From Terriglobia bacterium (GTDB lineage Bacteria > Acidobacteriota > Terriglobia > Terriglobales > Acidobacteriaceae), in the NCBI GenBank assembly GCA_020073165.1, contig JAIQFP010000013.1:62001-126000 (forward strand): a stretch of 64,000 nt of DNA, in the 5' to 3' direction. Of this stretch, positions 47,848 through 50,376 are shown piece after piece; positions within the stretch are counted from its first letter, which is position 1; every line of letters starts with the position of its first letter. The translations under genes and the position numbers were made by a program. Below the pieces are notes generated by a model that worked only from the letters and a program-made list of their open reading frames with translations, was not told the origin of the DNA and did not search any database.

Positions 47848-47855
47848 CATAATTC
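47848..47855. repeat. Target site duplication, left copy (CATAATTC)
   Basis: The 8-bp CATAATTC directly outside the left inverted repeat is identical to 50369-50376 directly outside the right inverted repeat. An 8-bp duplication is the length known for IS1595-family transposition. Confidence 0.95.
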
Positions 47856-47879
47856 CAAGATTATTCACTTCACACAAAT
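47856..47879. repeat. Left terminal inverted repeat
   Basis: Begins CAAGATTATTCACTT and ends ACACAAAT. It differs from the right repeat only at position 16 (C here, G there), which falls inside the -35 box it encodes (TTCACA here). Confidence 0.93.
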
Positions 47880-47897
47880 GACACCTAGAGATAGAAT
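47869..47897 (+). promoter_or_regulatory. Promoter of the passenger membrane protein, -35 inside the inverted repeat
   Basis: TTCACA (47869-47874), a 17-nt spacer, TAGAAT (47892-47897). The expected start point is near 47904, followed by GGGGGT 8-9 nt before the ATG at 47928. Confidence 0.65.
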
Positions 47898-47927
47898 TAG
47901 CCCCTCCGCTGTGTGGGGGTGTGCACG

Positions 47928-48716
47928 ATGGGTAAGAGAGAAGCGGAACTGCCGCACTCATTTGTGTCGTTCTACCTGTCACTTGTCAGGTGGGTATTTA
48001 CGGAGGCATATGACGTGATAGACAGTCTCATCACGTTCATTGCAGTTGTTCTCTTCTTCGTTGCCCTTTTTAGTAAAGAATTGGCGAACCAATGGGAGAC
48101 GCGCTGGCAAGGGATGTCGCGCTGGTATTCGCTAGTTCCATTGGCGGTACTGCTGTCATATCGAACGATGAAAGCCAATTATGCTCACTTTGAGAGTGTG
48201 GTCAGTAAGGTGGATGGGCTAACGGCAGACCTACAGGCAGAACGTGACCGTTTCCAGCAGCCAGATGTTTCATTATCGTGGAACTGGCCTATCAATGAGA
48301 GGCAACACCAGCGCTTCTTGGGAGGAACAGAAAAACAGATTTTGGTTCACAATCGCAGTAAGGAATACGTTTACAACGTTCAACTTCATCCTATAGAACT
48401 CGGCCAAGGTTTGACGTTTGATGTGATCAATGAAATTGCTCCCGATGCACAACTTCCCGCAGTTGGCCGCTGGGATGACAGTTCCAGCCTGAGCAAGAAC
48501 TACGTCTATTTTTTTGCGCGTACAGAGGAAGAAGGGACGGGGAAAGGCTGGTATCAGCCAAAACCTCACAACCGAGGATTGAGCGATTCCTGGTTCAAGA
48601 TCCCAATGGTTTTAACGTATCAATCTCACGGCATTACATGGGAAGCCAGATTCGAGTTTGTGTACGACGTTGGCGAGGAAAGTTGCTTTACTAGAACCTC
48701 AGAAAGAAGGGTTTAA
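47928..48716 (+). CDS. Transposon passenger: two-helix membrane protein of unknown family
   Basis: 262 residues from the ATG at 47928 (GGGGGT upstream); an in-frame GTG at 47913 lies before the ribosome site. I do not recognise the family. Residues ~33-50 (SLITFIAVVLFFVALF) and ~66-78 (WYSLVPLAVLLSY) are membrane helices. A predicted coiled coil follows (~85-112, HFESVVSKVDGLTADLQAERDRFQ). The last 150 residues form a soluble beta-rich domain rich in Trp and Tyr (SLSWNWPINERQHQRFLGG…YFFARTEEEGTGKGWYQP…TWEARFEFVYDVG). Codon use is AT-leaning, with two AUA codons (Ile31, Ile156) among ten Ile. It lies just inside the left inverted repeat with its own promoter and is the first passenger of the element. 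It could provide immunity, regulation or a host benefit; nothing in the sequence decides this. Confidence 0.8.
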   Translation: MGKREAELPHSFVSFYLSLVRWVFTEAYDVIDSLITFIAVVLFFVALFSKELANQWETRWQGMSRWYSLVPLAVLLSYRTMKANYAHFESVVSKVDGLTADLQAERDRFQQPDVSLSWNWPINERQHQRFLGGTEKQILVHNRSKEYVYNVQLHPIELGQGLTFDVINEIAPDAQLPAVGRWDDSSSLSKNYVYFFARTEEEGTGKGWYQPKPHNRGLSDSWFKIPMVLTYQSHGITWEARFEFVYDVGEESCFTRTSERRV

Positions 48717-48771
48717 GCAACGGCCTTTGTCGGTTCCTTAGTATTAGAGGTTGTTGGACTCCGCATTATAA

Positions 48772-48859
48772 TGGCGGAGGCTGCGGGGATCGGACCCGAT
48801 TCCCCGTAGGGAATGTCCGGCTTATAAGGCCGGTCCTAGCCACCAGCTAGACAGCCTCC
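48772..48859 (-). tRNA. Non-canonical class II tRNA-like gene, anticodon UAU, 8/4 acceptor-T arrangement
   Basis: Read on the minus strand, the 88 nt fold as follows. The acceptor GGAGGCTG/CAGCCTCC has 8 bp (48859-48852 with 48783-48776). A 4-bp D stem CTAG/CTAG encloses a 7-nt loop with GG. The anticodon stem CCGGC/GCCGG has 5 bp with loop CTTATAA, so U33 and anticodon UAU (48826-48824) reading AUA. The variable arm is long (ATTCCC/GGGAAT, 6 bp, loop TACG). The T stem CGGG/CCCG has 4 bp with loop TCCGATC, then G73 and an encoded CCA. An 8+4 branch with long variable arm and G73 is the plan of Sec/Ser-type and 'allo-' tRNAs, not of tRNA-Ile (7+5, short variable loop, A73). By family knowledge SerRS is the likely charging enzyme; this is inference. 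Odd points are C55 in place of the near-universal U55 and a competing hairpin across the variable and T arms, so decay cannot be excluded. Confidence 0.68.
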
Positions 48860-48879
48860 GCGTTGTTTCGGTGGAGGGG

Positions 48880-48942
48880 GTCACCACGGCCTCAAGCCTC
48901 GCCGCTTGGGGCCTTCGTGTTGTCGCCCAACTCCACGGTGAC
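48880..48942. ncRNA. Structured non-coding segment with 10-bp hairpin
   Basis: GGCCTCAAGC (48888-48897) and GCTTGGGGCC (48904-48913) pair over 10 bp with one G-U. An outer stem GTCACC (48880-48885)/GGTGAC (48937-48942) encloses it. It lies just upstream of the tRNA-like gene in that gene's direction and could be part of its precursor, or a terminator against read-through. Orientation is undecided. Confidence 0.35.
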
Positions 48943-49060
48943 GGCGACGATGGAATCGAGCTAATTCTCTTCTGCCCATAGAGTTCTCCAAGGATCGAAG
49001 CCAAGGCACACTTCTCCCCGTGATTTTCTTCACTTTTAAGTTGACGGAGTTGGGGAACTT

Positions 49061-49123
49061 AAACTAGGATGGGCTTGTTCAAGAGCACCCATCCAGCGAC
49101 CCCGGCAAGGGTCGCTTTAGTTT
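49061..49123 (+). ncRNA. Candidate three-way junction RNA ending in a terminator-like hairpin
   Basis: Three perfect stems fit together: P1 AAACTA (49061-49066)/TAGTTT (49118-49123), P2 GGATGGG (49067-49073)/CCCATCC (49088-49094) and P3 GCGACCC (49096-49102)/GGGTCGC (49109-49115). Only 0-2 nt join the stems, so the junction is compact. P3 followed by TTTAGTTTT also looks like an intrinsic terminator on the plus strand. No known riboswitch class was recognised from its loops (CTTGTTCAAGAGCA and CGGCAA). It may be a small RNA, a cis-regulator of the following genes, or simply a terminator plus an accidental partner stem. Confidence 0.45.
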
Positions 49124-49269
49124 TGGTGCCACAATTCCGGGTACGCGTGGTGGGTAGTGGGTAAGGACTTCTACGCTACAACTGGTGTGGACTACGCTCA
49201 GCATCCTACATCAAAGTATCTCGGAAATGAAAGCAAAAACACGCAGATTAGTGGTGCTACACTGAGCAC

Positions 49270-49398
49270 ATGAAAGCGGACAAAGCACAGTTCGATGAAG
49301 TTCTACGCCGGATGCTCCAAAAGCCTCCGCAGAAGACCGCTGATATGCACCGCCGGAAGAAAGCCCAGGCCGCGAAGCCTAAGCATTCTCAGAAGTGA
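49270..49398 (+). CDS. Small basic protein, transposon passenger (42 aa)
   Basis: A 43-codon frame, MKADKAQFDEVLRRMLQK… ending …AKPKHSQK. It has an amphipathic N-terminal helix (residues ~3-18) and a Lys/Arg/Gln-rich tail, so it could bind nucleic acid or the transposase. Small proteins of similar design (MK.DK..FD..L..LL…) seem common in Acidobacteria, though I cannot name a family. It has no ribosome site, but TACACT ends 6 nt before the ATG, compatible with a leaderless message as proposed for the transposase. Its last 20 bases overlap the 3' end of the transposase gene on the other strand. Confidence 0.5.
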   Translation: MKADKAQFDEVLRRMLQKPPQKTADMHRRKKAQAAKPKHSQK

Positions 49399-50320
49399 GC
49401 GCATCGAACGTTAGTGGTGGGAATCCTGCCAAACGCCGCACAGTCTCTATGAATGCGTGCGGATCGTTCCGGCGATTAAACCTGTAGGAAAATTCATTCA
49501 GATACTTTTGCAGGTGCTTTATCGAGAGGCGGTGAAAGCTGCCTATGACGCCGCGTTTCAGCAGAGAGAATGCGGATTCAATCGTGTTCGTGTGGATCAT
49601 GCCGTCCACGTAGCTCCCTATGCTGTGATTGATGATTCGGTGCTTTGCCGCATGTCCTGTGCGCCGTAACGCGCCCTTGGCTTCGCTGGAATCATCGGTC
49701 ATCACAAACTCGACATCCGGCCTCAAGTTTGATTCGATAATTTGGCGCAAGGTCTTGGACTTCGTGTCCTTGGCCTGGATAAAGCGCAGTGGACCTTTGC
49801 GCTCACGAATGCCGATCACGATGTGCTTGTTCTTGAGCGCAGCCGCGTGGCCTTTGCCCTTCTGGTATCCGCCGATGTAGGTCTCATCAATTTCCACGAT
49901 CCCGCCAAGCTGAGGCAGCGAGCCTTCCCGCATGGCCTCACGGATGCGGTGATTCAAGTACCACGCCGTCTTGTATCCGCCGATTGCCAGATCGCGCTGT
50001 AGCTGTTTTGCGCTGAGTCCCTTCTTCGCATTCAGCATGAGAGCAACCGCGTGGAACCACACTATCAGGGGAAGGTGCGTGTCATGGAACAGCGTGCCAG
50101 AGGTCGGGGAGAATTGATTGCGGCAGGTCTTTTCCGAGCATAAATAGAACCACCAGCGTTTATTCCTGCCTTTTTTCTTCGCGCCGCGCTCCACGCGCTT
50201 CGGGTCTTTGGCTCCGCACTGTGGGCAACGGATTACGCCATCGGGCCAGCGCATCTGTTCGATGTAAGCCAAGCACTGTGCGTCAGTTGCGAACTTTGAG
50301 GAAACCTCTCGGATGTCCAT
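49379..50320 (-). CDS. IS1595 family (ISXO2-like) DDE transposase
   Basis: 313 residues from the ATG at 50320. Upstream in-frame codons would lie inside the inverted repeat and before the -10 box. An N-terminal zinc ribbon (CLAYIEQMRWPDGVIRCPQCGAKDPKRV…WWFYLCSEKTCRNQFSPTSGTLFHDTHLPL) precedes an HTH segment and the ISXO2 catalytic core: EIDETYIGGYQKGKGH (first Asp), FVMTDDSSEAKG (second Asp), and HTNTIESAFSLLKRGVIGSFHRLSIKHLQKYLNEFSYRFNRR (Asn/Glu region that closes the active site). The frame is intact, so the element may be active. Five of 23 Ile codons are AUA, in PL-I-VWF, HS-I-GSY, GV-I-GSF, LS-I-KHL and AF-I-ETV. Expression is driven from the right inverted repeat. Confidence 0.95.
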   Translation of the reverse strand: MDIREVSSKFATDAQCLAYIEQMRWPDGVIRCPQCGAKDPKRVERGAKKKGRNKRWWFYLCSEKTCRNQFSPTSGTLFHDTHLPLIVWFHAVALMLNAKKGLSAKQLQRDLAIGGYKTAWYLNHRIREAMREGSLPQLGGIVEIDETYIGGYQKGKGHAAALKNKHIVIGIRERKGPLRFIQAKDTKSKTLRQIIESNLRPDVEFVMTDDSSEAKGALRRTGHAAKHRIINHSIGSYVDGMIHTNTIESAFSLLKRGVIGSFHRLSIKHLQKYLNEFSYRFNRRNDPHAFIETVRRLAGFPPLTFDALTSENA

Positions 50321-50326
50321 GCTTGA

Positions 50327-50355
50327 ATTATGGCCTATTTTCCTATTTGTGTCAA
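50327..50355 (-). promoter_or_regulatory. Transposase promoter with -35 inside the inverted repeat; leaderless
   Basis: On the minus strand TTGACA (50355-50350), a 17-nt spacer and CATAAT (50332-50327). The ATG begins 6 nt further on, at 50320, so transcription would start at the initiation codon. The -35 hexamer is a perfect consensus. Confidence 0.8.
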
Positions 50356-50368
50356 GTGAATAATCTTG
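50345..50368. repeat. Right terminal inverted repeat
   Basis: On the plus strand ATTTGTGTCAAGTGAA…CTTG, the reverse complement of 47856-47879 except at one position. Twenty-three of 24 bases match. Confidence 0.93.
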
Positions 50369-50376
50369 CATAATTC
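50369..50376. repeat. Target site duplication, right copy (CATAATTC)
   Basis: Identical to 47848-47855. Together they define the insertion point in the former 337-nt divergent gap between the che operon and the histidine kinase operon. Confidence 0.95.

What the first reader, a model, noticed from the sequence alone, without database searches (positions are those of the whole stretch)
47856..50368. A complete IS1595-type transposon that carries passenger genes including a tRNA-like gene
The boundaries are exact: 24-bp inverted repeats with one mismatch and an 8-bp perfect target duplication. The transposase is intact. Inside are a membrane protein, a small basic protein, structured RNA and a tRNA-like gene. 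Ordinary IS1595-family insertion sequences carry only the transposase. A transposon that brings its own decoding molecule could alter translation of its own or host genes and may be a new kind of selfish or beneficial system.
Basis: partly seen in the sequence, partly recalled or inferred. Interest (0 to 1): 0.93.

Follow-up and report, generated by a model that had tools for sequence, protein, structure and literature searches.

The report
Transposon carrying its own recoding tRNA
This soil-bacterium jumping gene carries a misfit transfer RNA whose anticodon matches an odd codon kept at fixed places in the gene's own transposase, so the element probably reads part of its own message by a private version of the genetic code.

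Summary
In detail: 47856-50368 is a complete IS1595-family element (24-bp TIRs, 8-bp TSD, intact transposase) with an empty site in a same-genus genome. The tRNA is real: an 8/4 "allo-tRNA" with a Ser-type body (G73, long variable arm) and anticodon UAU. Allo-tRNA-UAU, and a suspected transposon link, were already in print.

What appears new is a codon-anticodon coupling. Transposases of 28 related elements with a UAU tRNA hold on average 4.36 AUA codons (91 without: 1.03), at fixed columns never written ATT/ATC (61 AUA, 0 ATT/ATC). Three elements whose tRNA reads UAA have UUA at two of these columns. In UAU elements AUA does not behave as Ile; it fits Ser/Ala positions. In elements without the tRNA it behaves as Ile. 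A rule fixed beforehand, using transposase codons alone, was tried on 38 new elements; 26 had enough flank. It predicted a tRNA in 14: all 14 had one with the predicted triplet in the loop (loop non-standard in four). Of 12 negatives one had one.

Best reading: the element carries a missense-suppressor tRNA that recodes its own transposase (AUA to Ser). Charging and decoding are inferred, not shown.

The parts
47848..47855 (.). left target duplication CATAATTC
   Evidence: sequence; single CACAATTC at the empty site in G001
47856..47879 (+). left terminal inverted repeat, 24 nt
   Evidence: 96% complementary to the right one; many tRNA-bearing relatives end in ..GATTAT(T/G)CACTTGACAC
47913..48716 (+). 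passenger ORF, up to 267 aa, N-terminal hydrophobic stretches (by eye), unknown family
   Evidence: 2 AUA codons; tblastn found no relative in the 17 loci other than the element itself
48772..48859 (-). tRNA gene: 8-bp acceptor stem, 4-bp T stem, long variable arm, anticodon UAU, G73, encoded CCA (allo-tRNA type 8/4)
   Evidence: 19 of 27 pairs with changes on both sides over 13 sequences, 0 of 500 shuffles as high
49270..49398 (+). small basic ORF, 42 aa, convergent with the transposase end; similar ORFs seen by eye in L021, L024, L025, L030
   Evidence: by-eye reading, no homology search run
49379..50320 (-). IS1595-family transposase, 313 codons from the start most used by relatives; longest ORF to 50371
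49448..49450 (-). AUA codon, ORF residue 308
49520..49522 (-). AUA codon, ORF residue 284, constant column (AUA in 21 of 28 UAU-type, UUA in 3 of 3 UAA-type)
49544..49546 (-). AUA codon, ORF residue 276, constant column (AUA in 20 of 28 UAU-type, ATT/ATC in 0)
49619..49621 (-). AUA codon, ORF residue 251
50063..50065 (-). AUA codon, ORF residue 103 (AUA at this column in 7 of the 28 UAU-type, this one included)
50345..50368 (-). right terminal inverted repeat, 24 nt
50369..50376 (.). right target duplication CATAATTC

Best explanation
A transporter-type IS1595 element that carries a dedicated missense-suppressor tRNA for its own transposase. Shown: boundaries, empty site, real tRNA fold, anticodon-codon coupling across elements, AUA not behaving as Ile where the tRNA is present and behaving as Ile where it is absent. 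Inferred: the tRNA is charged with serine by host SerRS (which reads body and not anticodon; PMC7609411 and recalled) and puts Ser at the AUA codons of the transposase, competing with the host's lysidine tRNA-Ile2; active transposase is then made mainly where the element's own tRNA is expressed, so mobility is licensed by the element itself. AUA is rare in host genes, which would limit the damage.
For: (1) Coupling: of 125 non-identical transposases (L028 moved to UAU after its tRNA was found), AUA per gene from the M18 column on is 4.36 in 28 UAU-type, 1.03 in 91 without tRNA, Mann-Whitney p 1.9e-13. At columns 21, 276, 284 the UAU-type hold 61 AUA and 0 ATT/ATC; the 3 UAA-type hold UUA at 21 and 284, 3 of 3 each. 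All 9 UUA codons of 4 UAA-clade transposases fall on columns 21, 284, 316, which carry AUA in UAU-type genes. (2) Meaning: changed AUA sites in UAU-type pairs (55% identity or more) go to another Ile codon in 4.3%, against 46.6% for ATT and 22.2% for ATC; column-wise inference for UAU-type AUA puts S and A first (-3.6 each), Ile 9th (-19.2); without the three constant columns S first (-0.7), Ile 12th; for AUA of no-tRNA elements Ile is first in 98.8% of bootstraps. (3) 54% of AUA sites and 32% of AUA columns lie at helix Ncap-N3 of the predicted fold; ATT/ATC 8% and 9%, Ser 23% and 16%, background 15%. (4) Flanking codons vary synonymously, so it is no DNA motif. (5) Body: G73 in 24 of 26 aligned element tRNAs, as in the four host tRNA-Ser; the model built from element tRNAs scores these four first, 77-67 bits, then Leu 62-59; no G3:U70 in 26. 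(6) Prediction: 14 of 14 evaluable positives. Of nine AUA-bearing loci listed for which ARAGORN showed no tRNA, five later gave a UAU tRNA (L028, L041, L043, L047/L150, L048). (7) A distant clade (L109, L183, L184) has UAU tRNA and AUA at columns 21 and 276.
Against: Column 276 is hydrophobic (I/V/L/M/F) in most tRNA-less relatives, so Ser there is odd. S and A are tied over all columns, where A tops 38% and S 29% of bootstraps; without the constant columns S tops 48%; no amino acid reaches a majority, and a first version without one vote per column ranked V first, then I, A. The other four of the nine loci gave no UAU tRNA: L054 and L108 run into contig ends, L042 is cut and shows only an odd UAA-like RNA, and L040 has a transposase with five AUA and about 5 kb downstream but no tRNA by three methods; L174 is similar. 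L285 has a UAU tRNA without AUA at the three columns. Of 15 strong allo-tRNA hits in 399 genomes seven are not with an intact IS1595 transposase, five of these with no trace of one. Passenger ORFs are not AUA-enriched. The review says UAU allo-tRNAs could not be used in E. coli translation (PMC7609411, section 7). Elements share ancestry, so counts are not independent. No expression, charging or protein data.
Confidence: 0.65

Rival explanations
1. Self-limitation switch: host tRNA-Ile2 reads AUA as Ile and gives active transposase when the element arrives; as the element's Ser-type tRNA accumulates, Ser replaces Ile and transposase is inactivated.
For: Column 276 is hydrophobic in most relatives without the tRNA, in the main clade I, L, F or V in those that also lack AUA there except UAA-clade L069 (T), L165 (T, broken) and L174 (Y). 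Same codon-anticodon coupling as the best explanation.
Against: Most other AUA columns are polar or small in relatives, the four UAA-clade genes have Thr or Asn at 276, and Ile ranks 12th at the AUA columns other than 21, 276, 284.
Confidence: 0.15
2. Codon supply, as in tRNA-carrying phages: the tRNA is charged with Ile (or Leu in UAA elements) and only helps translate rare AUA or UUA codons.
For: AUA is rare in the host: 30 of 16121 codons in 30 window ORFs; anticodon matches the codon.
Against: Ser-type body with G73 and long arm; AUA never interchanged with ATT/ATC at the three columns; Ile disfavoured. Host has TilS, so presumably its own AUA decoding. Passenger ORFs not enriched.
Confidence: 0.08
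3. A tRNA-like regulatory RNA that pairs by its anticodon with the transposase mRNA without taking part in translation.
For: Some UAU tRNAs have odd anticodon loops (8 nt in L048, L258, L289, L292) and the reported group failed in E. coli translation.
Against: Cloverleaf covariation incl. acceptor and T stems, encoded CCA in several; Ser/Ala-like protein positions and helix N-termini would not follow.
Confidence: 0.08
4. Chance: a tRNA gene picked up as cargo, AUA codons from AT-rich drift.
For: Elements hold varied other ORFs; one element without tRNA has as many as 7 AUA codons (L093).
Against: Held-out prediction 14 of 14 against 1 of 12, Fisher p 1.6e-6, not corrected for kinship; UUA/UAA switch at the same columns.
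Confidence: 0.02

Closest known systems
Allo-tRNA, 8/4 type, UAU group (Mukai et al. 2017, NAR; known here only through passages and section 7 of the review PMC7609411)
   Same: 8-bp acceptor, 4-bp T stem, long variable arm, non-serine anticodon UAU, Acidobacteria; [quoted passage not shown]
   Different: Here the tRNA lies inside delimited IS1595 elements, also as 7/5 Ser-type bodies and with UAA, and matches codons kept in the element's transposase
IS1595-family transporter IS (tIS) with passenger genes (Siguier et al. 2009; seen only as a citation)
   Same: Transposase domain, TIRs, 8-bp TSD, passenger genes
   Different: A tRNA passenger tied to the transposase by codon choice is not mentioned in the passages seen
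Suppressor-tRNA recoding of phages (PMC10879173, passages read)
   Same: Mobile element brings a tRNA that changes the reading of its own genes in a standard-code host
   Different: Phages reassign a stop codon; here a sense codon (AUA, or UUA) in one gene of a small transposon
Nematode nev-tRNA-Ile(UAU) with a V-arm, charged with Leu in vitro (PMC4300185, abstract)
   Same: Class II body with UAU anticodon and a non-Ile charge
   Different: Eukaryotic, no detectable mistranslation, no coupled gene mentioned in the abstract

Membership tests
IS1595 family | IS1595 DDE transposase with zinc ribbon | tested here: met
IS1595 family | terminal inverted repeats and 8-bp target duplication | tested here: met
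   in the window. In relatives my end search itself demanded an identical 8-bp repeat; it found such a pair in 79 of 125 (16 of 27 UAU, 3 of 3 UAA), which is no independent test of the 8 bp
IS1595 family | recent or demonstrated transposition | tested here: inconclusive
   empty site in G001 shows insertion; no second copy in the host
Transporter IS (tIS) | passenger genes not needed for transposition between the ends | tested here: inconclusive
   two ORFs and a tRNA between the TIRs; whether the tRNA is needed for transposition is the open question
Allo-tRNA | 12-bp acceptor branch as 8/4 | tested here: met
Allo-tRNA | Ser identity elements (long variable arm, G73) with non-Ser anticodon | tested here: met
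   that G73 counts for SerRS is recalled
Allo-tRNA | aminoacylation with Ser or Ala and use in translation | not testable with these tools
   no wet-lab data
Phage-type stop-codon suppressor tRNA | anticodon reads a stop codon | tested here: not met
   anticodon UAU reads AUA; tRNAs with a UUA anticodon occur in L153 and L231
Ordinary tRNA-Ile | short variable loop and A73 | tested here: not met
   long variable arm, G73; Ile features recalled

The most novel reading that the evidence does not exclude
A transposon with a private genetic code: a small mobile element reassigns a sense codon (AUA, in a sister line UUA) to serine through its own tRNA, has written that codon into fixed structural positions of its transposase, and thereby makes its mobility depend on its own tRNA; anticodon and codons have switched together at least once, and the arrangement may have arisen twice.
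Probability: 0.57. Interest if true: 0.97.

Novelty: categorically new. Interest (0 to 1): 0.93.

Why it matters
It would be a natural, element-private reassignment of a sense codon in cells with the standard code, with two anticodon versions to compare. It would give a function to the puzzling UAU allo-tRNAs, the most abundant group among allo-tRNA genes in soil and sediment metagenomes according to the review PMC7609411, and offer a testable way in which a selfish element controls its own transposase. It would also mean that standard-code translations of these transposases are wrong at several residues.

Tried and rejected
Rfam scan of the window: no match at gathering score. Second copy in the host genome: none. 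Pfam, NCBIfam and PADLOC on the two passenger ORFs: nothing. Passenger ORFs as users of the recoded codon: not enriched, 60 AUA in 6804 codons of mechanical ORFs against 313 in 18418 in no-tRNA elements. Read-through of stops in L165 (TAG and TAA in the transposase) by an element suppressor: no tRNA found there, taken as a broken gene; L297 has one TAG, not followed. DNA-motif explanation of the fixed codons: rejected by synonymous variation around them. Ala identity G3:U70: absent. A first inference over AUA sites without one vote per column gave V first, then I, A, because column 276 dominates; it goes against the Ser reading. The PDB fold search gave only weak DDE transposase/integrase matches, best ISCth4 at TM 0.34; the model was made from the standard translation, with Ile at AUA.

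Choices that affect counts: hits under about 700 nt and identical cores dropped (L108 fell out so); tree made with 119 of 125 rows, score above 240; for the AUA and UUA inference in no-tRNA elements six were left out (L040, L042, L054, L174, L165, L069: AUA/UUA-rich without a tRNA, or broken), but they are in the exchange test and the counts. The tRNA class of an element was set by ARAGORN or model hits within -1.5 to +4.5 kb; L042 (odd UAA-like hit on the other strand) was counted as none; tRNAs outside an element that look like ordinary host genes (L059, L060, L089, L098, L103, L104) as none. AUA counts use the longest ORF; one search starts at the M18 column. In the held-out test 60 places were fetched from the list: the 40 best-scoring ones not yet fetched and 20 chosen lower down; 22 proved duplicates of earlier elements and were dropped; 26 of the 38 left had 2 kb or more downstream; without that filter the table is 15/7 against 1/15, p 1.7e-4. 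The rule was written in the notebook before the fetch. The class search with model R1 scored at most 11 candidates a genome with strict filters, so 15 is a lower bound.

Papers: PMC7609411 passages and section 7; PMC7986276, PMC3129680, PMC10879173 passages; PMC4300185 abstract and outline; Mukai 2017 not held, Siguier 2009 not sought, neither read. Statements that the coupling is not in print rest on searches in an open-access library only.
Full report
The element. Window 47848-50376 holds a target duplication CATAATTC on both sides of 24-bp inverted repeats with one mismatch. The transposase matches the IS1595 DDE and zinc-ribbon domains and NCBIfam transpos_IS1595. In G001, the one genome of the same genus that was searched, the two flanks lie next to each other with a single CACAATTC, so this is an insertion and not an ancestral locus. 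There is one copy in the host.

The tRNA. On the minus strand, about 520 nt after the transposase stop, lies an 88-nt tRNA gene that ARAGORN calls tRNA-Ile(UAU). By its sequence it has an 8-bp acceptor stem, a 4-bp T stem, a long variable arm, G73 and an encoded CCA. This is the 8/4 allo-tRNA of Mukai et al. [quoted passage not shown] coli translation. So neither the tRNA type nor the suspicion of a transposon link is new.

Relatives. Transposase searches gave 16 longer loci from relatives, 80 named loci and 40 more from 399 genomes of the class. Among 125 non-identical transposases from these and the window, 27 had a UAU tRNA nearby (22 by ARAGORN; L022, L041, L043, L048, L150 by covariance model), three a UAA tRNA, three another tRNA, 92 none. 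A TIR pair with an identical 8-bp repeat was found for 16 of 27 UAU and 3 of 3 UAA elements; the 16 ARAGORN UAU/UAA tRNAs in such elements all lie between the ends. Of 25 ARAGORN UAU/UAA genes, 20 are on the transposase strand and all are downstream of it, 109 to 2959 nt away. The tRNAs are under strong structural selection: in 13 sequences of the 8/4 type 92.5% of cells pair and 19 of 27 pairs change on both sides, in 13 of the 7/5 type 92.0% and 20 of 27; the structures were derived from members of the same alignments.

Codon-anticodon coupling. Transposases of UAU elements are rich in AUA: 4.36 per gene in 28 (L028 added once its tRNA was found), range 2-7, against 1.03 in 91 without tRNA, range 0-7. 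The window gene has five (six in the longest ORF). AUA sits at fixed columns: window residue 21 in 20 of 28, 276 in 20 of 28, 284 in 21 of 28, and in no case is ATT or ATC found there. The window itself has CGA at 21. In the three elements whose tRNA has anticodon UAA, columns 21 and 284 are UUA in all three; L069, of the same clade but on a short contig where no tRNA was found, has the same. Neighbouring codons vary synonymously, for example Ser283 as TCG, TCA, TCC, AGC, TCT, so the constraint is on the codon and not on a DNA site.

Meaning of AUA. In pairs of UAU-type transposases at 55% identity or more, a changed AUA becomes another Ile codon in 4.3% of cases, against 46.6% for ATT and 22.2% for ATC. 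In no-tRNA elements AUA exchanges with Val, Leu and Ile as expected, Ile 20%. A column-wise inference gives Ser and Ala first (-3.6 each) and Ile ninth (-19.2); Ala tops 38% and Ser 29% of bootstraps. Without the three constant columns Ser is first (-0.7; Ala -4.1; Ile -20.6, twelfth), topping 48% of bootstraps. AUA in no-tRNA elements, six AUA/UUA-rich or broken ones left out, is Ile in 98.8%. Known codons are mostly recovered by the same method, ATT as Ile, Ser, Thr and Ala codons as themselves, ATC as Val before Ile because the codon tested is masked. An earlier version without one vote per column ranked Val first, then Ile and Ala. So 'not Ile' is firm and 'Ser' rests on the tRNA body together with a weak preference. 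In the predicted fold (mean pLDDT 84) 54% of AUA sites and 32% of AUA columns are at helix Ncap-N3; for ATT/ATC 8% and 9%, for Ser 23% and 16%. The body of the tRNAs points to serine: G73 in 24 of 26, the model built from element tRNAs finds the host's four tRNA-Ser first, then Leu, and G3:U70 is absent. Host AUA is rare, 1.86 per thousand codons in 30 window ORFs, and the host has TilS, so it should read AUA as Ile (the role of TilS is recalled).

Tests by prediction. Of nine AUA-bearing loci noted as lacking an ARAGORN tRNA (L028, L040-L043, L047, L048, L054, L108), five later gave one: L041, L043, L047 (as L150) and L048 by model, and L028 by a class-wide model search, 3.4 kb downstream of the stretch first fetched from. 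Four did not: L054 and L108 end with their contigs, L042 is cut, L040 has no excuse. Then a rule was fixed in the notebook and applied to 60 new places, 38 of them new elements. Of 26 with at least 2 kb downstream, 14 were predicted to carry a tRNA, and all 14 had one: 11 predicted UAU, 3 predicted UAA. In L258, L289 and L292 the anticodon loop has eight nucleotides and in L263 it is irregular, so the reading triplet there is inferred; ARAGORN itself read L292 as UUA. Of 12 predicted negatives one (L285) had a UAU tRNA. Fisher p 1.6e-6; relatedness is not corrected for.

Evolution. On the transposase tree the tRNA-bearing elements fall into a main supported clade of 46 rows (25 UAU, 3 UAA, 18 without) and a distant clade (L109, L183, L184) among elements without tRNA, which also has AUA at columns 21 and 276. 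The tree needs 11 gains or losses of UAU, 9 of them forced by well-supported branches; a second origin is likely but repeated loss is not excluded. Of the 18 members of the main clade without a detected tRNA, 15 have AUA at neither 276 nor 284; the other three are L040, L042, L054.

Limits. Of 15 strong 8/4 hits in 399 genomes, eight lie with an intact IS1595 transposase, one beside a TIR at a contig end, one near a transposase remnant, and five with neither, of which two (L229, L231) do not have UAU. L040 is an AUA-rich element without a detectable tRNA. Column 276 remains hard to explain as Ser. Whether Ser is the active or the inactive form, and whether the tRNA is charged at all, needs experiments.

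Verdict. The closest analogies are phage stop-codon recoding and the allo-tRNAs; no report of a transposon that recodes a sense codon of its own transposase was found in the searches made.

Noticed in passing
L021:2711-2785, L286:4206-4279, L288:4681-4756, L285:4829-4901: A second odd tRNA-like gene (anticodons UGC, GGC, CGC, unclear) sits in tandem just upstream of the UAU tRNA; the polycistrons of irregular tRNAs in the review may be these.
   Followed up: partly
L153:1365-1450, L231:5214-5301: tRNAs with UUA anticodon (ochre suppressor) and a long variable arm, the first next to a UAU tRNA.
   Followed up: partly
L024:4976-5061 and just upstream: IS1595 element with a Leu-like tRNA body bearing the Asp anticodon GUC, and by eye a GCU tRNA with a large D-loop insert.
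   Followed up: no
L048:7419-7507, L258:3644-3729, L289:966-1054, L292:6483-6569: UAU tRNAs with an eight-nucleotide anticodon loop AUUUAUAC, as in frameshift suppressors (recalled).
   Followed up: no
L226:4942-5028, L230:5167-5255: UAU 8/4 tRNAs without IS1595 transposase or TIR nearby.
   Followed up: partly
L048 and L049 downstream of the transposase: ORF pair that looks by eye like a HigB/HigA-type toxin-antitoxin cargo.
   Followed up: no
L042:6158-6227 (minus): Short tRNA-like RNA with UAA loop and no clear D arm in an AUA-rich element.
   Followed up: partly
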